Positions 24 through 25,825 of a stretch of 27,953 bases of DNA are shown one piece after another. The notes below the pieces were generated by a model that ran no database searches, had not been told where the DNA came from, and saw nothing but the letters and a program-made list of their open reading frames with translations. Every line of letters begins with the position of its first letter. The stretch's first letter is position 1. Made by a program: the position numbers and the translations under genes. Source of the DNA: a virus; IMG/VR virus record IMGVR_UViG_3300010300_000080, positions 1-27,953 of that record; one strand, 5' to 3'.

Positions 24-194
24 ATGAAATGTTATCTGTGTGATACTGAACTTATTTGGGGAGGTGATCACGATTGTGTGGACGAACCGGTCAGCATTTA
101 CTATTCAGTGGTGACTAACCTGTCTTGTCCGAACTGTCAAGCGTTTGTTTTGGTATATCATCCAAGAGATGATGGAGAATCGGAGGAGGCTTGA
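24..194 (+). CDS. Small two-CxxC putative zinc-binding protein
   Basis: A 56-residue protein with two CxxC pairs, CYLC at residues 3-6 and CPNC at about 35-38, the arrangement expected of a small zinc ribbon. The stretch ELIWGGDHD after the first pair recalls short conserved proteins I know from marine phages, but the function is unknown. GGAG at 11-14 lies 9 bases before the ATG. The stop codon overlaps the RNA polymerase ATG by one base (TGATG), and the polymerase Shine-Dalgarno lies inside its last codons, so the two are probably translationally coupled. It could be a small regulator of host or phage RNA polymerase, but that is a guess from position only. Confidence 0.75.
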   Translation: MKCYLCDTELIWGGDHDCVDEPVSIYYSVVTNLSCPNCQAFVLVYHPRDDGESEEA

Positions 195-2587
195 TGAGCA
201 AGCAACTTGATGCTGAGAAGAAGATGCTTGAGGCTGGACGGGAACGCTACTGGCGTAACTACCGAAAGTCACAAGCCGCTGGTATGGAAGCCAACACGCC
301 TGTAGGACGCAGGCTCCTCGCTGAGTCAGTCACAAAGCTGACCAGAGGCATTGAGGAATGGAAACGCCAAGCATCCAAAGCACCTGGAATACGACACCGT
401 GCGTTGGATTACATCGAACAACTACAGCCCAAGGTCATCGCTGCGATCACCGCAAGGTCTGTCATTGATTCAATCAGTCACGGCAAGAAACTGACACGAT
501 CCGCAATGACCGTGGCTCGTCTTCTTCAGGACGAACTGTTGTTCACAACGCTTCGCAAAGAAGAGCCGGACTTCTGGCGGTTGACTCAGATGAACCGTCA
601 GCGTGCGATGAAGTCAGGACCGCAGTATCACGCTGACTTCATCAAACGTGCCGCCAAGCATTCGGACATCATGTTCCCCAAGTGGCCTCAGCGTGACTCC
701 CTTGCTGTTGGTCTGGTCTGCGTGGAACTGATGCGTCAATACACCGGCATCATTGAGATCAATCAACGCCGTGGGTTTGATGGTAAGACCACCACGATTG
801 TCCAGGCGACTGACGAAATGTTGGACTGGATGAAGAAGTCTCACAGCTTCAGCGAAGTCTTGAACCCTGTGTTCATGCCAACGGTCGATACACCAATGGA
901 CTGGGATACGGTCTACTCCGGCGGTTATCACGGAGTCATGTGGAAGCCAAGACCTATGGTCAAGACCCACGACAAAAGACTTCTGAATGAACTGCACGGC
1001 ATTGAGATGCCTGAGGTCTTCGAGGCCATCAACATTGTCCAGAGAACTGGCTGGAGCATGAACCCATTTATCTACGGGACCATGAAGATGGCTTGGGAAG
1101 ACGGTGCATCTTTGGGAGACCTGCCGCCTGCTGAGGATGAACCACTGCCTGACAAGCCTGAGGACATCGACACCAACAAAGAGGCCCGTCGTGAATACTG
1201 CCGGATGGCTGCGTCGATCCACAAAGACAACGAGTCAAACCAAAGCAAGCGATTGCAACTGGTCAAGGCTCTCCAGCTTTGCGAAGAGTATGACGGAAAG
1301 ACTATGGGCTTCCCCCATCAGTTTGACTTCAGGGGACGCATGTACCCCATGCCCTACTTCTTGCAACCACAGGGAACAAGTTGGGCCAAGTCTCTGTTGA
1401 TGTTCAAGAACGGTGCGGAGATGAAGACCGAAGATGATGTGTCGTGGCTTGCGATTGCCGGAGCGAACCGGTGGGGCCACGACAAGAAGACTTTTGTTGA
1501 GCGGATCGAATGGGTTCACTCCAATACAGAATGGATTGAAGACTGTGCCAAAGATCCCCTCGGATACACCCAATGGACGAAAGCAGATGAACCGTGGGAG
1601 TTCCTCGCGTTCTGCGATGAATGGGCGAGATTCAAAAGACAAGGCTTCGGCTTCATGTCGGCTCTGCCTTGTTCTCAAGATGGAACCTGCAACGGAATCC
1701 AAATCCTCAGCCTCGCAAGGCTAGACCCAATCGGAGCGTATGCAACGAACTGTATGCCCTGCGACAGACCCCAGGACATCTACGGCATTGTCGCAGATAA
1801 GGTCGTGCAGAAGGTCATGCAGTCTACCCATGAGTTTGCCATTGGATGGCAGCAGTTGGAGATCAACAGGTCTCTGGTCAAACGCCCAGTGATGACTCTT
1901 CCGTATGGGGTGACGCTGTTCAAGGTCAAGCAGTACCTCTCGGATCACCTTCGGGTTGAAGTCAAGAAGGGTATGCACAATCCGTTCGGTGATGAGATCC
2001 GCAGGCCCACGGCTTGGCTGGGTGACATCGTTTGGGAGTGCATCAAGGAAACGGTGTCTGGAGCTGTGGAGATCATGGACTGGCTCAAGGAGTGCGTCAA
2101 GATTTCTATCGAGAACGACACCCCGCTTCGTTGGTTCACCTCTGACGGCTTCATGGTTCGCCAGGCTTATGAGTGCCTGGAACGCTACACCGTGAAGACC
2201 AGCATTGGTCAAGTGATTCGCCAGCAACGGCTACGCTCCGAGACCGGAGAACTGTCGATGCGTCGAAACTTGAATGGGATCACTGCAAACTGGACTCACA
2301 GTTGGGACGGATGCGTCAATCGCTCATCAATCCGTACCGCCCATCACAATGGGGTGACAGAGGTTGGCAGTGTGCATGATTCTTTATCGACACCAGCACC
2401 ACATTGCGGTATTATGGCTGCAAGCATCCGCGAGGCTGCGATTGAAATCTTTAGTGATGACCCCTTGGAACGGTTCCGTCAGGGTCAACAAGCGATGCTC
2501 CCGCAAGGTATAGACCTGCCGGAGCCTCCCCAACGGGGGGATCTCGATATCAATGTCCTTCGAGATGCCCCTTACTTTTTCAGTTGA
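194..2587 (+). CDS. 1: T7-like single-subunit DNA-directed RNA polymerase
   Basis: A 797-residue homologue of T7 gp1 (883 residues), the polymerase that transcribes the phage middle and late genes. Visible landmarks: FDFRGRMYP in the central region; motif A CSQDGTCNGIQ with the first metal-binding Asp at about residue 496; motif B VKRPVMTLPYG with the nucleotide-binding Lys at about 563; WFTSDGF upstream of the specificity-loop region; motif C VHDS with the second catalytic Asp at about 729; and the C-terminal 'foot' ending in YFFS, equivalent to T7 DFAFA. All catalytic positions are present. ATG 194 is chosen over the in-frame TTG at 191 because GGAGGAGG lies about 4-5 bases upstream. The specificity-loop region differs clearly from T7, so promoter recognition is probably different. 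Confidence 0.97.
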   Translation: MSKQLDAEKKMLEAGRERYWRNYRKSQAAGMEANTPVGRRLLAESVTKLTRGIEEWKRQASKAPGIRHRALDYIEQLQPKVIAAITARSVIDSISHGKKLTRSAMTVARLLQDELLFTTLRKEEPDFWRLTQMNRQRAMKSGPQYHADFIKRAAKHSDIMFPKWPQRDSLAVGLVCVELMRQYTGIIEINQRRGFDGKTTTIVQATDEMLDWMKKSHSFSEVLNPVFMPTVDTPMDWDTVYSGGYHGVMWKPRPMVKTHDKRLLNELHGIEMPEVFEAINIVQRTGWSMNPFIYGTMKMAWEDGASLGDLPPAEDEPLPDKPEDIDTNKEARREYCRMAASIHKDNESNQSKRLQLVKALQLCEEYDGKTMGFPHQFDFRGRMYPMPYFLQPQGTSWAKSLLMFKNGAEMKTEDDVSWLAIAGANRWGHDKKTFVERIEWVHSNTEWIEDCAKDPLGYTQWTKADEPWEFLAFCDEWARFKRQGFGFMSALPCSQDGTCNGIQILSLARLDPIGAYATNCMPCDRPQDIYGIVADKVVQKVMQSTHEFAIGWQQLEINRSLVKRPVMTLPYGVTLFKVKQYLSDHLRVEVKKGMHNPFGDEIRRPTAWLGDIVWECIKETVSGAVEIMDWLKECVKISIENDTPLRWFTSDGFMVRQAYECLERYTVKTSIGQVIRQQRLRSETGELSMRRNLNGITANWTHSWDGCVNRSSIRTAHHNGVTEVGSVHDSLSTPAPHCGIMAASIREAAIEIFSDDPLERFRQGQQAMLPQGIDLPEPPQRGDLDINVLRDAPYFFS

Positions 2588-17271: not shown

Positions 17272-17820
17272 ATGTGTACGCCTACAGCCTTTATTGCGTT
17301 GACGATTGCTCAAGGTGCTGCGTCATATGCGGGAGCAAGGGCAACCGCAAGTGCCCAAGAAGCGGCTGCTCAACAGTCCTACGACTTGAACAAGGCCAAC
17401 GCTGAACAATCAGCGATGAACCAGTACCGGCAGATTCGCCAGCGTCAGGCACAAGAGAACGAGAAGTCTGCCCAGGAGATCCAAGAAGTCTCCAGGCGTG
17501 CGCTCAAGGCTCGATCTACTGCGATGGTTCAGGCGGCTGAGAAGGGCGTGTCCGGTCGCAACATCGCTGACCTGTTCCAAGACTTTGAGCGTCAAGAGTC
17601 TGAGTACCGCAACATCTCACTGCGTAACCGTGCGTTCCGAGAGATGGCCTATGACGATCAACTTGAGGCTGTCCGATTGGGTACTCAATCTCGCATCATC
17701 AATGCTCTGCCTGCTCCAGTCGCCAAGCCCAGCTTCATCGCTACGGCTCTCAGGGTTGGTGGTCAGATCGCTGGCGGCATCGGAGACTTCCAAGATCCTA
17801 ATCCAGAGGCTACCGACTAA
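17272..17820 (+). CDS. 14: Internal virion protein B, gp14-like
   Basis: A 182-residue protein close to T7 gp14 (196). It has an Ala-rich start FIALTIAQGAASYAGARATA, a long helical segment rich in Gln and Arg, and the conserved SRRALKARSTAMVQAAEKGV followed by SGRNIADLFQDF. In T7 it is ejected and forms the outer-membrane part of the DNA channel. The hydrophobic N-terminus and the C-terminal ATALRVGGQIAGGIGDF fit that role. It starts 3 bases after the gp13-like stop and shares one base with gp15. Confidence 0.9.
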   Translation: MCTPTAFIALTIAQGAASYAGARATASAQEAAAQQSYDLNKANAEQSAMNQYRQIRQRQAQENEKSAQEIQEVSRRALKARSTAMVQAAEKGVSGRNIADLFQDFERQESEYRNISLRNRAFREMAYDDQLEAVRLGTQSRIINALPAPVAKPSFIATALRVGGQIAGGIGDFQDPNPEATD

Positions 17821-20057
17821 TGTCACAATCTCAATTTGATGTCGATCTCGGTCTGTTCAAACAAATCGAACCTGCGGCACGGCCCATCGACACTTTTGCT
17901 CCAGTACGGATCAAGGCTCCTGACGCTGGCTCTCAACTTCGAGAACTTGCTGCGGGTCTTTCTACGTTCAACAAGGGTTTGACTAAGTTTGGATTGGAGC
18001 AAAAAGCTGAGCAAGATGAAAAAGACCGCGTACTTGGCGAGGCGGACGCTGCCGAACTCACACAAGCAGATCGAATCGAGATTGCCCGTCAAGGAATCAG
18101 GGACGCTGAGAAAGCGGGACTCATCCCACAAGGACTAAGCCCTGTCCGTTTGATTGCGATTCAAGAGGCCGTTGGTCGTGACATCGCACGCGATTATGAA
18201 AGCAGAGCGTTTGCCCTGTTGCCTCGTCTCACCGATCCAACCAACAATGAAAACATTGATGAAGCGTTCGAGGCCGAGTGGACAAAAACTAACCTGCAAT
18301 CTGAGTCGTTCTACATCACCTCGGCAGCTCTGAAGGAGCGAGCCAACATCGACCAACGGTTGATCCGGCAAGCAACGGTTGAACGGGGTCGGAACACTTA
18401 TGCGCTCAACAAAGAGCAACATGCGGATGATCTTGCCAGAGACTTGGACATTGCTGACAGCAAAGGCGAAGAGTTTACGACTAAGGAGATTGAAGCGTGG
18501 ATGAACAAGGGACGCGATGAGTTTGGAGCGTCGTTCTTTGAGGAAGGCTGGCAGCGAATCCAAGCACAAGCGTTTGACTTGGCAAGGGATGGTAAATTAG
18601 AAGAAGCCGAGACATTGTTGGTGAACTTTGAAAATGCAAACCCATCCGGTCAGAAGGGCGCTGACATGGGGCGGAAGTATGCTGATGAGATTTCTTTGGC
18701 AGAGGCAAGGGCCGAAGAACTTGCGGAACGCTACGAAGACAACGAAAAGCGAAAACAAGAGCAAGAACGTGATGAGGCTCGCAAGCAAAAGGTTGAGGAG
18801 GCGGATCGAATCAGGGACGCTGTTGGAGAACTTGTTGTCGGTCTTGGTGACGAAGTTCCGGATCGGTCAGAGTTTCGAGAACTTGTTCAGTCAACACTGA
18901 AAGAAAAAGGATTCTCTCCTGCGTTGATTGGTCGTTACATGACTGACGAGTTCTCCGGTGATTACAGCAGCCTCCAAGACCCTCAGGCTAAAGAAGATGT
19001 AATCGCCGCGTTGGCTGGGGCTAGAACACTGGAGGAACTTCGGTCTCTTGCAGACGAACTAGGTGCATCTAAGATTCAACTAATAGAAGCAGAAAGGCGA
19101 CTGGACACGAAACGTGATGCATTGCTGTCCCAAGTATCTAGGTTGGTTAGCCCAGAGTTGGGTATTTGGCAGAATGAAATAGATGTTCTTCTTGATAATC
19201 TTCCCTCTGAAAATAGGGAGTTACGGGCAAAGATCATTCGGCGTGAACTCGGTGCTTTCCAAGAAGAAGTGAATCGCGTGACTAAGGAGGTTCGTGATAA
19301 CAACCAAGACTTCACTATTGGTGAGGTAGCACGCGAAGTCCAACGACGCATGGCTGAGTGGAACACGGAAAACATCGGAAGGTTGAACAACGCTGATGAT
19401 GTGAACGCTCCAGTCAACGAGGTAGCCGAAGCAAGATTTGAAATGCCTTCACTCTCGCGGCTTCCTGCCGATCCAGAAGGTGATGAATTCGCAGGAGAAG
19501 GTGTTCTTGACGGACTCTTCGCCGGAAGGCTTGGAAACAGGGTCGGAGATTACTTCGATCAGACAACCGCCCAAGGTCGAGAACAATACGCACGCGAGAA
19601 TGTTCAACCCATCGTTCGAGAGGAGTTGATTGCGGCGGATCAAGCTATATCACTGGCGGTCGCGGGACGAACTCGCACCGATCCACGATCTGGTCGCCCT
19701 GATCCAAGGTTTACAACATTTGATCGTCAGGCGCTGGATCAACAAGGTACTCCAGCTCGTCGCTACCGATCTGCTGTCCTGTTCACTGGAGTCTCCATTG
19801 AGGATCTTGAACGTGGCACGTTTGAGAACGGGGTGACGATTGTTGACGAACTTAGAAATCCAAAAATGACTCCGTTCTTCCCAAATAAGAAGGCACTGGA
19901 AGATGCTCTGGATGAGTACGACAACGCCACCCCTGAAGCCCAAAGTGGAACATTGATTGGGCGACTGATCACTGAACTGGGGGCCGAAAACACAGGAACC
20001 GCAGATCAGTTTGCCACGATGCAAGGTCTTCTTCTTCAACGTAGAGGTATGAACTAA
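17820..20057 (+). CDS. 15: Internal virion protein C, gp15-like
   Basis: A 745-residue, highly charged, mostly helical protein, matching T7 gp15 (747) in length and position. Residues 25-60 contain LRELAAGLSTFNKGLTKFG, typical of this family, then long coiled-coil-prone stretches, for example RKQEQERDEARKQKVEEADR near residue 310. In T7 it is part of the internal core and, after ejection, of the periplasmic tube that carries DNA. No catalytic motif is visible. The stop is 2 bases before the gp16-like start. Confidence 0.88.
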   Translation: MSQSQFDVDLGLFKQIEPAARPIDTFAPVRIKAPDAGSQLRELAAGLSTFNKGLTKFGLEQKAEQDEKDRVLGEADAAELTQADRIEIARQGIRDAEKAGLIPQGLSPVRLIAIQEAVGRDIARDYESRAFALLPRLTDPTNNENIDEAFEAEWTKTNLQSESFYITSAALKERANIDQRLIRQATVERGRNTYALNKEQHADDLARDLDIADSKGEEFTTKEIEAWMNKGRDEFGASFFEEGWQRIQAQAFDLARDGKLEEAETLLVNFENANPSGQKGADMGRKYADEISLAEARAEELAERYEDNEKRKQEQERDEARKQKVEEADRIRDAVGELVVGLGDEVPDRSEFRELVQSTLKEKGFSPALIGRYMTDEFSGDYSSLQDPQAKEDVIAALAGARTLEELRSLADELGASKIQLIEAERRLDTKRDALLSQVSRLVSPELGIWQNEIDVLLDNLPSENRELRAKIIRRELGAFQEEVNRVTKEVRDNNQDFTIGEVAREVQRRMAEWNTENIGRLNNADDVNAPVNEVAEARFEMPSLSRLPADPEGDEFAGEGVLDGLFAGRLGNRVGDYFDQTTAQGREQYARENVQPIVREELIAADQAISLAVAGRTRTDPRSGRPDPRFTTFDRQALDQQGTPARRYRSAVLFTGVSIEDLERGTFENGVTIVDELRNPKMTPFFPNKKALEDALDEYDNATPEAQSGTLIGRLITELGAENTGTADQFATMQGLLLQRRGMN

Positions 20058-20059
20058 AT

Positions 20060-23000
20060 ATGTCACGACTTGATGAACTACTCGCTCAAGTACCCCAAGA
20101 AGAGATTGATGCCGCAGCCCAAGAAGAATCTGGATTCTTCGACGTTGCTGGCGACATCCTTGCAGCCCCATTCCGTGGTGTCGAAGGTGCAGTCCAAGGC
20201 ATCTACAACCTCGGGGACATGCTGACGTTTGACCTCTTGCCTGACTACGACAACCGTTTGCTGGGCGAGTCATCAACCACTGCCGGTGGGATTGTCGAAG
20301 GTATCTCTCAGTTCGCCAGCGGCATGTTTGTTCCAGGCGTTGGTGGCCTCTCGATTGCCTCGAAGCTGGGCAAGTTGGGTAAGGCTCGCACGTTGCTGAC
20401 GCAGGGTTCAAAGTCGAGAGAGATCGCCAAGTTTGCCGTAGGTGGTGCAGTCACGGACTTTGCGTACTTCGATGGTAAGCAAGGTCGGCTGTCTGATCTG
20501 ATTCAACAAAACCCCTCGCTTCAGAACCCGATCACGGAGTTCTTGCAATCAGAGGAGGACGATACTCAGATCGAAGGTCGCCTCAAGAATGCCGTGGAAG
20601 GCTTGGGTCTTGGTCTTCTTGCTGATGGGATCATCGCAGGAGCCAAGGGGCTTCGTGCTGGAGGTAAGGCAAAAGCGGACGGAGCGTCTCCCGCTGCTGT
20701 CGAAGAGGCGATGAGAAAGGCCGAGGGTGAGCATGCTCCTGCTCCCAAAACAGAGCCAGATGATTTGGTCTTTGAAGCCGAAGAAGGAGCCTTTTATCAC
20801 GGAACCGCCTCAGATTTAGATGCTGGTTCGGTTGATCCATACGCAACTTCAGTGTCCGGTCTGTATGGTCCGGGGCTGTATCTCACCGACAATCCCAATG
20901 TTGCATACGGATACGCGAAGACCAGATCCAAGCAGGCAAAAGGCGATAAATCTGCCAAGGTCTTCAAAGTCAACTTGGGTGAAACAAACCTGATTGATCT
21001 CGATGCAAAAGCGGTCGATGCTGATCCAGCGGTTCGGGAGAAGTTTGAGGGTTTCTACAACGGGACTTTAGGTTTTGATGGGAACCTTAAAGAATCCTCA
21101 AGTTATTTCGACAACATGACTTTGGGTCAAATCTACGAAGAAGCTACTGACATTCTGTCTGAGGCACGAATCAGTCGAGAAGAAGCGTTGAACTATATTG
21201 ACCCATTCCAAGGTGACATCATGGCTTTGGGTTATGACGGGTTCCGTCACCTTGGTGGAGGGCGGGTAGGAAAAGTTCGTCACAATGTCGCCATCCTTTT
21301 CGATCCATCCGGAAAGACTTCATCAGGCCGTCCGAATCCGATTCAGGGTATGGAAGACATCGTGGGTTCTGGAAAGCCTCGTCCAAAAGCTACGCCTGTA
21401 GAAGAAGATGCCACTCCTGGTGCAGGGCCAACGCCTGAGCCTCCAAAAGAACCCGAGTCAGCCAGTGAGTTCCTCGCTGGTGTTGAGGCTGACGATCTCA
21501 CAGGAAAGCCGCCGTCAGAGCGATTGAACATTCGTCGGGTGTCTGATCAGGACAGCGGCAAGCGGGTCGTGAAGGGAACTCTTGATGAGATGGAGGCTCG
21601 CGGAGAGTTTGATGATGTCCGGTCTAAGTCTTTTGAAGAACAACGGGCCGATGCTGCATCGGTGGCTGCGGACTTGGCTGATGCCACAGGCGATGCTTCA
21701 CTGAAGAATCTTCAAGGCGTTCTCAAAGATAAAGAAGATGCTCTTACCGAAGCACTGCCAGCGTTGACTGCGGTTCGTGAGACTCTTTCCCAGGCTGCCG
21801 CTGAAGCCGGTCAGATCGCCCGTAAAGGTGCGAGGGCAACTTCCTCGGAGAAGATGGAGTTCTTGCTTCTTCAACAACGCATCGAAGTCTTGTCAAAGAC
21901 TGCGGTAAACATGCAGCGAGCCGTGGCTCGGCAGTTGGGACTTCAGCGGTTCATCCCCAGCGTGGACGCAAACGTCAGACTTCTTCCTGATGACTTGGTG
22001 AAGGGGGGAACAGACGCCGGGAAAGCTGCACAAGAGCAACTTCTCCGTGACCTCGGAGGCGGGGATGCGGCTGAAGGTCTTGCACGGGTTGATTCGATGA
22101 TGGAGAAGTTTGCTGCTGCCGCTTATCAAAACCCAATGCGTGCGGTCGGTCTGGCTAAAAACGGAGGTAAGCTCAACTTCATCGGGTACTGGATGAACAG
22201 CATCCTGTCTGGACCAACGACTCACATGGTCAACATCGCATCCGGTGTCTTTACCACAGCGTTCCTCCCGATGGAACGAGCGTTAGGACAACTCCTCACC
22301 GGAAACCTTGAAGCCGCAGGTCGAGAGGTGGCAAAGTACGGGTATATGTTTGAAGCATTCAACGATTCTCTTTCAGCCGCCAAGTTGACGCTGAAGCAAG
22401 GTGAGAATGTCTTGGACTCTTCAGTCATGGTTCGTGATGACCTGAAGGCCGGAATCATTTCCACGATTGATGAGAATGTGGATGACGCTGTGTCTGCTTC
22501 TCAGAAATGGATCACCGGCATCATCAACACCCCCAGTAGATTCTTGGCGGCAGAAGACGAGTTCTTCAAGCAACTGAACTACCGTGCCGAGGTCAAGGCT
22601 GGACTCTATGACCAAGCGGTACGCCGTGGACTCAAGGGCGATGAAGCCGCCGTGTTCGTTGCTGATGGTTTCGAGAGAGTGACTAAGAACGGGCAGCTCT
22701 ACAACGAGAAGAACCTTCTTCAGCGTGCGGACATTGAGGCCAAGAGATTGAAACTCGATCCGTTGAATACCCCCGATCAGTATCAGAGATTTGTCAAAGA
22801 GTTCATGGCAAAGAACTTCGACAAGCAGTTTGCTGACATTGCTGAGACAGGGCTGGGGCGAGCGAGAGAAGCCACCTTCACAACTCCGTTGACGAAGGAT
22901 CGCGGTGGGGTTATTGATATTGGACGATCCGCAAACAAAGCGGTGAACGAACTTCCGCTATTGAGGTTTGTTCTCCCGTTCGTCCGAACACCTGCAAACC

Positions 23001-24148
23001 TTCTGGACTTCTTCTTCAAACGATTTGTTCCTACTGAGGGACTTTCAGTGATTGCACGAAAAACCAGAAGGGATCTTCTGTCATCCGATCCTCAGGTCCG
23101 CGCTGAATTTGTTGGAAGAATGGCAACCGGAACAATGATGGTCTCAGGGGCCGCAATCTTGCACGCCTCTGGTCGCCTCACTGGAACCGGTCCAACAGAT
23201 CCATCTCGCCGTGCGTTGCTCGAAGAGGCCGGATGGCAACCCTATTCGATTCTCGTTGGCGACAAGTATGTCTCATACCGACGATTCGACCCGTTTGCTG
23301 GGTTCTTGGCTGCCGTCGTTGATTTCGCTGAGGGAGCGAGTTATGCCGAAGAAGAATCAGATGATGAAATTCGCAATTCGTTCGCTGGACTTGTCTTTGC
23401 TGCTGCTCAGTTCAATAAGAACCGTTCGTTCTTCCAAGGTATTTCCAACCTTCTGAGTGCCGCATCGGAACCAGAGCGGTTCGGCCCCGGACTTGCGGAA
23501 CAGTACGCAGGTTCGCTGGTTCCCTCATTCCTCGCTCAACTCAAGCCTGCGTTCGGTGACTCCGAAATCAGAGAGGTTCGAGGACTCGTCGATGCGATGC
23601 GTAATCGTATTCCTGGGCTTGCGGAAGGCTTGGAAGGTCGCAGGAACATCTTCGGAGAGAACACCACTCGTCCCACCGGACCTTTGGCAATCGACCCGTT
23701 CCCCTACACCGAGGTCAAGGAAGATGTCATCTCTGAGGAGTTGATGAAGATTGGTATGCGGAATGGTATCTCTCGCCCGCGTGTCCGTAAGAATGGACTG
23801 GACTTGACCAACTACACCAACTCCAAGGGTCAAACTGCATACGACCGTTGGCAAGAACTTCATGGCAAGGTCAAGCTCAAGGGTCGGACGCTGCGTGACG
23901 CAATGAGTCGACTGATCCGATCCCGCGATTACCAGCGGCTCACCGAAGAATCGAACTCCAACTACGACTCACCTCGGGCTGAGGCTCTGCGTCGGTTGGT
24001 GTCTCGATACCGTGCCGAGGCATATAAGCAACTCCTCCGTGAGTTTGATGACCTTCGCACTGACGATGTGAACAACAACTTGAACCGTAAGGCTCTCCGA
24101 ACTGGTAAGAGCCTGTCTCAACTTCGTGCTTTGATTGGAGAAGAATAA
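20060..24148 (+). CDS. 16: gp16-like internal virion protein with ADP-ribosyltransferase-like domain
   Basis: A 1362-residue protein in the T7 gp16 position (1318). Unlike T7 gp16, its N-terminus shows no transglycosylase signature. Residues 1-200 hold FFDVAGDILAAPFRGVEGA, Gly-rich hydrophobic stretches and TDFAYFDGKQGRLSDL. Residues about 243-430 look like an ADP-ribosyltransferase of the polyvalent-protein type: FYHGT (His247), then GLYGPGLYLTDNPNVAYGYA (Tyr274), then GYDGFRHLGGG and VAILFDPSG. A Pro/Glu linker, a helical region, MNSILSGPTTHMVNIASG near 709 and FVLPFVRTPANLLDFFFKRF near 970 follow. The last two match large ejected proteins of marine podoviruses. A catalytic Glu is not obvious. 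Confidence 0.88.
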   Translation: MSRLDELLAQVPQEEIDAAAQEESGFFDVAGDILAAPFRGVEGAVQGIYNLGDMLTFDLLPDYDNRLLGESSTTAGGIVEGISQFASGMFVPGVGGLSIASKLGKLGKARTLLTQGSKSREIAKFAVGGAVTDFAYFDGKQGRLSDLIQQNPSLQNPITEFLQSEEDDTQIEGRLKNAVEGLGLGLLADGIIAGAKGLRAGGKAKADGASPAAVEEAMRKAEGEHAPAPKTEPDDLVFEAEEGAFYHGTASDLDAGSVDPYATSVSGLYGPGLYLTDNPNVAYGYAKTRSKQAKGDKSAKVFKVNLGETNLIDLDAKAVDADPAVREKFEGFYNGTLGFDGNLKESSSYFDNMTLGQIYEEATDILSEARISREEALNYIDPFQGDIMALGYDGFRHLGGGRVGKVRHNVAILFDPSGKTSSGRPNPIQGMEDIVGSGKPRPKATPVEEDATPGAGPTPEPPKEPESASEFLAGVEADDLTGKPPSERLNIRRVSDQDSGKRVVKGTLDEMEARGEFDDVRSKSFEEQRADAASVAADLADATGDASLKNLQGVLKDKEDALTEALPALTAVRETLSQAAAEAGQIARKGARATSSEKMEFLLLQQRIEVLSKTAVNMQRAVARQLGLQRFIPSVDANVRLLPDDLVKGGTDAGKAAQEQLLRDLGGGDAAEGLARVDSMMEKFAAAAYQNPMRAVGLAKNGGKLNFIGYWMNSILSGPTTHMVNIASGVFTTAFLPMERALGQLLTGNLEAAGREVAKYGYMFEAFNDSLSAAKLTLKQGENVLDSSVMVRDDLKAGIISTIDENVDDAVSASQKWITGIINTPSRFLAAEDEFFKQLNYRAEVKAGLYDQAVRRGLKGDEAAVFVADGFERVTKNGQLYNEKNLLQRADIEAKRLKLDPLNTPDQYQRFVKEFMAKNFDKQFADIAETGLGRAREATFTTPLTKDRGGVIDIGRSANKAVNELPLLRFVLPFVRTPANLLDFFFKRFVPTEGLSVIARKTRRDLLSSDPQVRAEFVGRMATGTMMVSGAAILHASGRLTGTGPTDPSRRALLEEAGWQPYSILVGDKYVSYRRFDPFAGFLAAVVDFAEGASYAEEESDDEIRNSFAGLVFAAAQFNKNRSFFQGISNLLSAASEPERFGPGLAEQYAGSLVPSFLAQLKPAFGDSEIREVRGLVDAMRNRIPGLAEGLEGRRNIFGENTTRPTGPLAIDPFPYTEVKEDVISEELMKIGMRNGISRPRVRKNGLDLTNYTNSKGQTAYDRWQELHGKVKLKGRTLRDAMSRLIRSRDYQRLTEESNSNYDSPRAEALRRLVSRYRAEAYKQLLREFDDLRTDDVNNNLNRKALRTGKSLSQLRALIGEE

Positions 24149-24510
24149 TGGCGGATGCCTCACTCACCTACACCGGCCTGTCAGGTAGTCAGGCTACGTT
24201 CTCTACCGCGTTCACTGGCGGTACAGCTCTGGATGCCTCACACATCGTTGTGAAAGTCGGCGGGGTCACTAAGACCATCACGACTCACTACACCGTGGCG
24301 GCAGACCGTCAGTCCATCACGTTTACTTCAGGCAACGAGCCGAGTGCAAACGTGGTGGTAGAACGAGTCACACCTCGCACCTCAGCGACCCGTCTGGTTG
24401 ATTTCACAAACGGAGCCACTCTCCAAGCGAACGATCTGGACAATATGTTCCTTCAGGTTCTCTACGTCTCGCAAGAGATCCAAGATCGAGTCACAACGCT
24501 GGAGTCTTGA
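24148..24510 (+). CDS. 17: Tail fibre N-terminal anchor protein, gp17 N-domain
   Basis: A 120-residue protein consisting only of the T7 gp17 N-terminal domain, which attaches the fibre to the tail. It begins ASLTYTGLSGSQATFSTAF and ends with RLVDFTNGATLQANDLDNMF and LQVLYVSQEIQD. T7 gp17 is 553 residues, with a shaft and receptor-binding tip; both are missing here. The tip must therefore be carried by another protein, most likely the lectin-like product encoded at 25016. The ATG overlaps the gp16-like stop (TAATG). No frameshift is apparent; the next gene starts immediately after with its own start. Confidence 0.93.
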   Translation: MADASLTYTGLSGSQATFSTAFTGGTALDASHIVVKVGGVTKTITTHYTVAADRQSITFTSGNEPSANVVVERVTPRTSATRLVDFTNGATLQANDLDNMFLQVLYVSQEIQDRVTTLES

Positions 24511-25015: not shown

Positions 25016-25825
25016 ATGGCACTGTGGTCACCCTCAAATCTGAATGCGACCCTGACGGCTTGGCAACAAGGCGGCACTGGTGTTTCGGTAAGCAGTTGGA
25101 CAGACTCTTCTGGCAACAGCAATAACCTTGTGCAAGCCGCCAGTGGAGACCAGCCCGCAGTCACCACCTTGAATGGGTTGGACATCCTTGACTTCAACAG
25201 AACCCAACTTGACCACATGGACTACGGCGACCTTGACGCTATGGATGTTGGCACTGGCGACTTCTACACGTTTATTGTTATGAACCCAGATGTAAGCAAC
25301 GCCTTCATGGCTCTTTTAGCAAAGCACAGTGCTGCTGATGACTACCTACTTCGCGTGGATGCTAACAACAAAATCCAGCAATACATCGGAAGCAATGCCG
25401 CTGGTATTGTTACGGGGTCAACAACGATTTCATCGGGAACCACTTACATTATTGCGGGCTACAGAGACAGTTCTGTTAGTCGTGTTCGCGTGGATGGTGC
25501 AGCAGATGGTTTTGCCATAAACGCTAATTCATTCAGCAACGCCAACGCTTTCCATGTTGCTGGTCAGGCATCTACGGGAACCTCCGCAAACTTTGACGGG
25601 CAGATTGCTGAGATCATCATGGGTCCCGGATCCATTGAGACCGAGGAGATTGAGAAAGTTGAGGGGTATCTGGCAGAACGCTTCGCTCTGACCTCGCTTC
25701 CTTCGTCTCACTCCTACAAGCAGCACCCGCCCACTGAGTACCTGGAAATCTCAGGAACCCAAGGTGATATCGAGTCGGGCCTAACGCTGTCCGTGTCCTC
25801 TGAACTAACCACGGTGAGGATCTAA
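25016..25825 (+). CDS. LamG/concanavalin A-like adhesin, probable receptor-binding protein
   Basis: A 269-residue protein with a lectin-type beta-sandwich. The N-terminus has VSSWTDSSGNSNNLVQA, then GLDILDFNRTQLDHM, FYTFIVMNPDV, a long beta region with YIIAGYRDSSVSRVRVDG, and the closing segment QIAEIIMGPGSIETEEIEKV followed by EGYLAERFAL. This 'D.SGN.NN ... IAEIII...L...E...VEGYLA' plan is typical of LamG-like domains, which often bind carbohydrate. Because the fibre anchor is truncated, this is the best candidate for the host-recognition tip. How it is attached to the anchor is not visible. The stop overlaps terS (TAATG). Confidence 0.85.
   Translation: MALWSPSNLNATLTAWQQGGTGVSVSSWTDSSGNSNNLVQAASGDQPAVTTLNGLDILDFNRTQLDHMDYGDLDAMDVGTGDFYTFIVMNPDVSNAFMALLAKHSAADDYLLRVDANNKIQQYIGSNAAGIVTGSTTISSGTTYIIAGYRDSSVSRVRVDGAADGFAINANSFSNANAFHVAGQASTGTSANFDGQIAEIIMGPGSIETEEIEKVEGYLAERFALTSLPSSHSYKQHPPTEYLEISGTQGDIESGLTLSVSSELTTVRI

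What the first reader, a model, noticed from the sequence alone, without database searches (positions are those of the whole stretch)
20789..21330. ADP-ribosyltransferase-like domain inside an ejected internal virion protein
Seen: residues about 243-430 of the gp16-like protein contain FYHGT, GLYGPGLYLTDN with a following GYA, GYDGF and VAILFDPSG. This is the order of ADP-ribosyltransferases in polyvalent phage and plasmid proteins (first-motif His, second-motif Tyr). Known: T7 gp16 is ejected into the host at infection, and T4 delivers the ART Alt with its DNA. Inference: this phage injects an ART with its genome to modify host factors before any gene is expressed, joined to the protein that builds the DNA channel. 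Caveat: the usual third-motif Glu is not evident, so the domain could be divergent or inactive.
Basis: partly seen in the sequence, partly recalled or inferred. Interest (0 to 1): 0.78.

Follow-up and report, generated by a model that had tools for sequence, protein, structure and literature searches.

The report
ADP-ribosyltransferase domain in phage ejection protein
A T7-like phage carries, inside the large protein it probably shoots into the bacterium ahead of its DNA, an enzyme-like domain of a kind that chemically tags host molecules, and relatives show this spot is a swappable cargo bay that repeatedly receives such domains.

Summary
ORF 20060-24148 (1362 aa) is the gp16-position internal virion protein of an Autographiviridae-type phage. 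Residues ~236-434 (nt 20765-21361) form an ADP-ribosyltransferase (ART) domain. Pfam gives only sub-threshold hits (ART-PolyVal 1.3e-4), but a profile built without this lineage finds it at 107 bits (5000 shuffles: at most 8.5), and AlphaFold gives a confident model (pLDDT 83). Its best PDB match is the cyanophage A4 pre-ejectosome protein; its viral matches include named ART-PolyVal proteins. The missing-Glu caveat is largely answered: this ART clade is reported to use H-Y-D, and the window keeps H247, Y274 and D393. The ART sits in a length-variable slot (231-1685 aa) between two conserved blocks. A 73%-identical relative lacks it; 8 of 50 other records carry above-cut-off ART-PolyVal domains, all in the gp16-like ORF; a tree needs at least 6 gains or losses; one near-identical pair differs by a clean cassette swap. 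Ejected ARTs are a published idea, and a cyanopodovirus core protein is already annotated ART-like. Novel are the T7-type gp16 context and the slot. Activity, ejection and target are untested.

The parts
20060..24148 (+). gp16-position internal virion (ejection) protein, 1362 aa, that carries the ART
   Evidence: PHROG 6651 internal virion protein 6.5e-65; lies between the gp15-position gene and the tail-fibre gene; homologues annotated internal virion protein D in pelagiphages and roseophages
20132..20764 (+). conserved N-terminal block (aa 25-235) of the ejection protein
   Evidence: 36-71% identity over 15 relatives, 22 invariant columns; blastp blocks
20582..20644 (+). weakly hydrophobic segment aa 175-195 followed by basic residues, just before the slot; possible membrane contact (speculative)
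   Evidence: hydropathy scan
20765..21361 (+). ART domain (aa 236-434), the cargo module
   Evidence: leave-out profile 107 bits; AF2 pLDDT 82.8, pTM 0.80; Foldseek to ART-PolyVal proteins and to PDB 9k3a_B; absent from the 73%-identical relative L020
20798..20800 (+). His247, ART motif 1 (FYHGT)
   Evidence: invariant in 14 aligned ARTs
20879..20881 (+). Tyr274, ART motif 2 (GPGLYLTD)
   Evidence: invariant in 14 aligned ARTs
20912..20914 (+). Tyr285 (GYA), conserved Tyr of the helix after motif 2
   Evidence: at least 90% conserved
21236..21238 (+). Asp393 in GYDGF, proposed third active-site residue of the H-Y-D type
   Evidence: at least 90% conserved, kept in slot ARTs of L105, L116, L119, L120, L124, L127, L135; H-Y-D active site reported for the family (PMC5512222); the identity of this Asp with the published one is inferred
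21287..21304 (+). last core strand VAILFD; the PARP-type Glu position is not conserved in the family
   Evidence: alignment A2
20765..22159 (+). variable slot (aa 236-700, 465 aa here) between the conserved blocks: ART plus Pro/Glu-rich linker and the region up to the C block
   Evidence: slot length 231-1685 aa across relatives
22160..24109 (+). conserved helical C-terminal block (aa ~701-1350)
   Evidence: 25-sequence alignment; AF2 mostly helical, pLDDT 69
17820..20057 (+). gp15-position core protein (745 aa)
   Evidence: gene order only; no Pfam or PHROG match
17272..17820 (+). gp14-like internal virion protein
   Evidence: PF24072 T7_gp14 2.5e-30
24148..24510 (+). T7-type tail fibre N-terminal domain protein
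   Evidence: PF03906 2.3e-17
191..2587 (+). T7-type RNA polymerase, marks an autographivirus-type phage
   Evidence: PF00940 1.6e-80

Best explanation
The region is a genuine ADP-ribosyltransferase domain of the H-Y-D, polyvalent-protein type. It was inserted as a cargo module into a linker slot of the gp16-position ejection protein of a T7-like phage. Shown here: homology, predicted fold, conserved active-site pattern, presence/absence as a module relative to a close relative, and repeated use of the same slot for ARTs and other modules. Inferred: the protein is packed in the internal core and ejected with the first DNA; the module reaches the NAD-containing cytoplasm; there it transfers ADP-ribose from NAD to a host target (protein, or less likely nucleic acid or a signalling nucleotide) before any phage gene is expressed. 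The likely benefit is blunting defence or retuning host machinery. The conserved N and C blocks do the envelope-crossing work, while the slot diversifies.
For: Homology beyond chance. H247, the two Gly of the GPG loop, Y274 and Thr of motif 2 invariant, D393 nearly so, over 14 diverse ARTs. AF2 model pLDDT 82.8, pTM 0.80. BFVD matches include proteins named ART-PolyVal, best such 2.9e-7; PDB match 9k3a_B, cyanophage A4 pre-ejectosome, 7.9e-5, whose gene also matches by profile at aa 1419-1583, E 1e-5. Profile hits to diphtheria toxin C-domain 3e-4 and weakly to PARPs. Module missing in L020. 8 of 50 gp16-like records carry above-cut-off ART-PolyVal, all in the gp16-like ORF. At least 6 changes on the tree. 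Motif region under strong purifying selection. Packaged or injected ARTs proposed widely (PMC5512222, PMC9503650).
Against: No biochemical evidence. The window domain is below Pfam's cut-off. Classical ART structures in the PDB matched only weakly by Foldseek (ParT E 0.5). The carrier shows no sequence or fold match to T7 gp16, so ejection is by analogy. The slot lies between blocks whose membrane topology is unknown; in T7 the gp16 N-terminal part stays periplasmic (PMC8954989), where NAD would be absent. Several slot ARTs in relatives lack the motif-1 His (L105) or the motif-2 Tyr (L116, L119, L127), so some are probably inactive or divergent.
Confidence: 0.66

Rival explanations
1. Degenerate ART fold used as a structural or binding module (for packing in the core or contact with the gp15-position ring), without catalysis.
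For: Sub-threshold Pfam score; aa 321-424 evolves faster than the motif region; an ART-like fold is part of the protein solved as the cyanophage A4 pre-ejectosome; some slot ARTs of relatives lack His or Tyr.
Against: H247, Y274, Y285 and D393 all kept; dN/dS 0.04-0.06 around the motifs; the domain is dispensable in the relative L020, which argues against a structural need.
Confidence: 0.2
2. The domain is an NAD-using enzyme but not a protein modifier: it hydrolyses NAD, or ADP-ribosylates DNA, RNA or a defence nucleotide.
For: ART superfamily chemistry is broad (PMC9503650); the family's own targets have not been tested.
Against: Nearest characterised clades (diphtheria toxin, PARP) modify proteins; the polyvalent ART clade is postulated to do so.
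Confidence: 0.17
3. The ART acts in the periplasm or at the membrane, or not at all until later in infection, because the slot is not delivered to the cytoplasm.
For: In T7 the gp16 N-terminal part is periplasmic (PMC8954989); the slot is N-terminal to the C block.
Against: NAD is not expected outside the cytoplasm; a weakly hydrophobic segment ending in basic residues just before the slot would fit a cytoplasmic side (weak).
Confidence: 0.1
4. Chance resemblance of short motifs.
For: Pfam scores alone are weak.
Against: Leave-out profile 107 bits against at most 8.5 for 5000 shuffles; confident model and ART-PolyVal fold matches.
Confidence: 0.01

Closest known systems
ART-PolyVal (Pfam PF18760), Tox-ART-HYD2 clade; prototype in Roseovarius Plymouth podovirus 1 vRNAP (CBX87992.1)
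   Same: H-Y-D motif order, G.G(L/F)(Y/F)(L/F)T loop, GYDG strand; embedded in a large virion protein
   Different: Below the Pfam cut-off; carrier is a T7-type gp16-position protein, not an N4-type virion RNA polymerase; long insert between motif 2 and GYDG
Cyanophage A4/A-4L core protein ORF27 (PDB 9k3a_B, pre-ejectosome) and relatives Pf-WMP3 ORF26, Lbo240-yong1, Pbo-yong3
   Same: ART-like fold inside a large core protein of a short-tailed phage; Pbo-yong3's protein is annotated mono-ADP-ribosyltransferase-like
   Different: Saffermanviridae; A-4L ART lies near the C terminus (aa 1419-1583), no carrier similarity seen; Pbo-yong3 carries a different ART (PF01129, aa 1261-1416)
T4 Alt
   Same: Proposed role: ART delivered with the DNA
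   Different: Alt uses R-S-E, is a separate protein, and is not fused to an ejection protein
T7 gp16
   Same: Gene position, internal virion protein D annotation of relatives, size
   Different: No detectable sequence or fold match of the C block; no lytic transglycosylase domain found; carries an ART instead
Yersinia phage fHe-Yen9-03 ART-PolyVal-like protein (BFVD A0A2C9D1N7)
   Same: Best-scoring stand-alone ART-PolyVal fold match, E 2.9e-7
   Different: Free-standing 199-aa protein

Membership tests
ART superfamily, H-Y-D / ART-PolyVal type | His in strand 1 and Tyr in strand 2 | tested here: met
   H247 and Y274 invariant in 14 aligned ARTs
ART superfamily, H-Y-D / ART-PolyVal type | Asp as third residue | tested here: met
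   D393 (GYDGF), nearly invariant; equation with the published strand-5 Asp is inferred
ART superfamily, H-Y-D / ART-PolyVal type | Profile score over Pfam's curated cut-off | tested here: inconclusive
   23.2 bits against 31.2; linked through a leave-out profile at 107 bits and BLASTP to L081 2e-22. Treated as a divergent relative.
ART superfamily, H-Y-D / ART-PolyVal type | ART fold | tested here: met
   AF2 pLDDT 82.8, pTM 0.80; matches to ART-PolyVal models; weak to classical ART crystal structures
ART superfamily, H-Y-D / ART-PolyVal type | NAD-dependent ADP-ribosylation | not testable with these tools
   needs an assay
Polyvalent proteins (Iyer et al. 2017) | Large protein from the virion gene cluster combining several effector-type domains | tested here: inconclusive
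   Window has one recognised effector domain; relatives' slots add methyltransferase (L110), DUF7178 (L159), HExxH motif (L030, L100, L102)
T7 gp16 | Gene position after gp14/gp15 and before the tail fibre | tested here: met
T7 gp16 | Sequence homology to T7 gp16 | tested here: not met
   hhalign C block against T7 gp16 E 0.031, probability 1.6%; no PDB fold match
T7 gp16 | N-terminal lytic transglycosylase | tested here: not met
   no such Pfam match in the ORF
T7 gp16 | Packaged and ejected | not testable with these tools
   PHROG 6651 annotation only
T4 Alt / R-S-E ARTs | R-S-E active site | tested here: not met
   H-Y-D pattern

The most novel reading that the evidence does not exclude
Gp16-position ejection proteins of T7-like phages are delivery vehicles with a dedicated cargo bay. 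Effector cassettes, ARTs foremost, are swapped at seams marked by a conserved TLFQ(S/D) peptide, which is a cleavage or docking site that frees or holds each module after ejection. The window shows a one-module version of this, without the seam motif.
Probability: 0.25. Interest if true: 0.82.

Novelty: new variant of a known kind. Interest (0 to 1): 0.62.

Why it matters
If the ART is active and delivered, a T7-like phage modifies its host at the moment of entry using its own DNA channel protein. The slot comparison turns that into a general question. A homologous position in many ejection proteins gains, loses and swaps ARTs, methyltransferases and other modules, so comparing slot contents across hosts could reveal which host defences or functions early-ejected effectors target. 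It also gives natural with-and-without pairs (L020 against the window; L135 against L138) for direct tests.

Tried and rejected
phmmer of the window domain against the PDB gave only E about 1; the alignment profile was needed. tblastn of the domain in phage isolates and plasmids found nothing significant at 0.01. A bacterial-genome scan with the closest subfamily found no relative, and the broader alignment had no usable stretch. L027 first looked as if it might share the ART, because its BLAST match runs to residue 343, but it has no ART motifs and no family hit. NCBIfam gave nothing useful. C-block fold search was uninformative, and T7 gp16 homology was not found. ARTs are not general in the carrier family: none was found in five cultured relatives, CRP-227, Gjalp, ProddE, CRP-114 and HTVC011P. 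Literature searches found no paper describing an ART in a T7-type gp16; only open-access papers were covered.

Full report
OBSERVATION. The ORF at 20060-24148 encodes 1362 aa with all stated motifs at the stated places. The window is an IMG/VR virus record of 27,953 bp with a T7-type RNA polymerase, primase-helicase, DNA polymerase, capsid assembly protein, major capsid protein, tail tube, nozzle, gp14-like protein, tail fibre and a terminase start. The ORF is in the gp16 position and matches PHROG 6651, internal virion protein, at 6.5e-65.

IS IT AN ART? Pfam alone gives weak, mutually consistent hits to three ART-type families: ART-PolyVal 1.3e-4, DUF3990 5e-4 and exotoxin A catalytic 1e-3, all below curated cut-offs. 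A scan of viral contigs for the GPGLYLTD coding pattern returned 52 stretches, most with an upstream HGT motif in large phage proteins. The closest, L081, is 33% identical over the domain (2e-22 within the collected ORFs). In a 14-sequence alignment, H247, the G.G of motif 2, Y274 and its Thr are invariant, and Y285 and G-Y-D393-G are at least 90% conserved. A profile that omits the window lineage finds it at 107 bits, and 5000 shuffles reach at most 8.5. A profile of mostly above-cut-off members plus the published prototype scores 32.4 against 13.1 for the best shuffle. The profile also reaches the diphtheria toxin C-domain (3e-4) and, weakly, PARPs.

FOLD. AlphaFold2 gives pLDDT 82.8 and pTM 0.80. 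Viral-model matches include several proteins named ART-PolyVal. The only significant PDB match is 9k3a_B, cyanophage A4 pre-ejectosome. That chain is A-4L ORF27, and the ART profile aligns to its residues 1419-1583. So an ART-like fold inside a packaged podovirus core protein appears to have been solved already, in a different carrier. Its relative in Plectonema phage Pbo-yong3 is annotated mono-ADP-ribosyltransferase-like and has an above-cut-off PF01129 ART. Classical ART crystal structures matched only weakly.

THE MISSING GLU. Iyer et al. 2017 report H, Y and D (strands 1, 2 and 5) for polyvalent-protein ARTs (PMC5512222). In the prototype, the isolates and the slot ARTs the conserved acidic residue is the Asp of G(Y/H/F)DG, while the last-strand position varies. 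Equating D393 with the published Asp is my inference. One relative (L076) has His there.

THE SLOT. Comparison with 80 gp16-like loci shows two conserved blocks (aa ~25-235 and ~701-1350) and between them a slot of 231-1685 aa. L020, 73% identical in both blocks, has no ART. Above-cut-off ART-PolyVal domains occur in 8 of 50 further records, every one inside the gp16-like ORF (slot scans). Other slots hold a methyltransferase (L110, PF13489), DUF7178 (L159) and HExxH motifs (L030, L100, L102). On a quick C-block tree, ART presence needs 7 changes, and well-supported branches force at least 6. L135 and L138 are 95% and 99% identical on either side of a clean exchange of the ART for an unrelated ~110-aa module. 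The window's ART is flanked by Pro/Glu-rich linkers and has slightly lower GC (0.48 against 0.52-0.56), fitting a modular insertion.

SELECTION. Among near relatives, dN/dS is 0.04-0.06 over aa 240-320 with the His and Tyr motifs; replacements lie mostly in the inter-motif region. Only three distinct sequences were compared, but this favours function over decay.

MECHANISM. Shown: a conserved ART domain in a virion-cluster protein, gained and lost as a module. Inferred: packaging, ejection, cytoplasmic delivery, NAD chemistry and target. The carrier has no detectable similarity to T7 gp16 itself, so those steps rest on gene order and annotation. In T7, gp16's N-terminal part stays periplasmic (PMC8954989), so the delivery side is an open point.

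NOVELTY. Head-packaged or injected ARTs, including fusions to virion proteins, are an established proposal (PMC5512222, PMC9503650). No paper found describes one in a T7-type gp16, nor the cargo slot, within the open-access library searched. Filed as a new variant of a known kind.

Noticed in passing
L120, L127, L119, L135, L138, L105 and other gp16-like slots: A TLFQ(S/D/T) peptide brackets cargo modules: LFQ occurs 25 times in 36,160 slot residues (3.7 expected by composition; 2 in the conserved blocks) and flanks the ARTs of L120 (480/675), L127 (914/1073), L119 (131/396) and L135 (912, FQS 1123). It is not enriched in unrelated polyvalent-type ORFs (17 against 15.6 expected). Codons vary, so selection seems to be on the peptide; it could be a protease site, docking tape or linker. 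Some sequences are near-duplicates. The window lacks it.
   Followed up: partly
L135 aa 929-1120 against L138 aa 929-1037: Two near-identical ejection proteins differ by a clean swap of the ART for an unrelated ~110-aa module.
   Followed up: partly
L100, L102, L105: Close gp16-like relatives show stepwise cargo: an HEVAH zincin-like motif in L100, an extra YHETS-type module in L102, and in L105 (truncated contig) the end of that module followed by an ART-PolyVal whose motif-1 His is Lys.
   Followed up: partly
L044, L045, L064, L086: Other large phage proteins combine an ART of this type with a region resembling the gp16-like C block, suggesting further independent fusions.
   Followed up: no
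L175:8001-12416 (Plectonema phage Pbo-yong3): Core protein carries an arginine-type ART (PF01129, 2.4e-9) at aa 1261-1416, a different ART family in a comparable carrier.
   Followed up: no
L171, L030, L113, L123, L107 slots: Weak repeated match to Phage_L5_gp82 (PF25735) marks another shared slot module of unknown function.
   Followed up: no
window 25016-25825: Laminin-G/concanavalin-like domain protein next to the tail fibre gene, a possible receptor or decoration protein.
   Followed up: no
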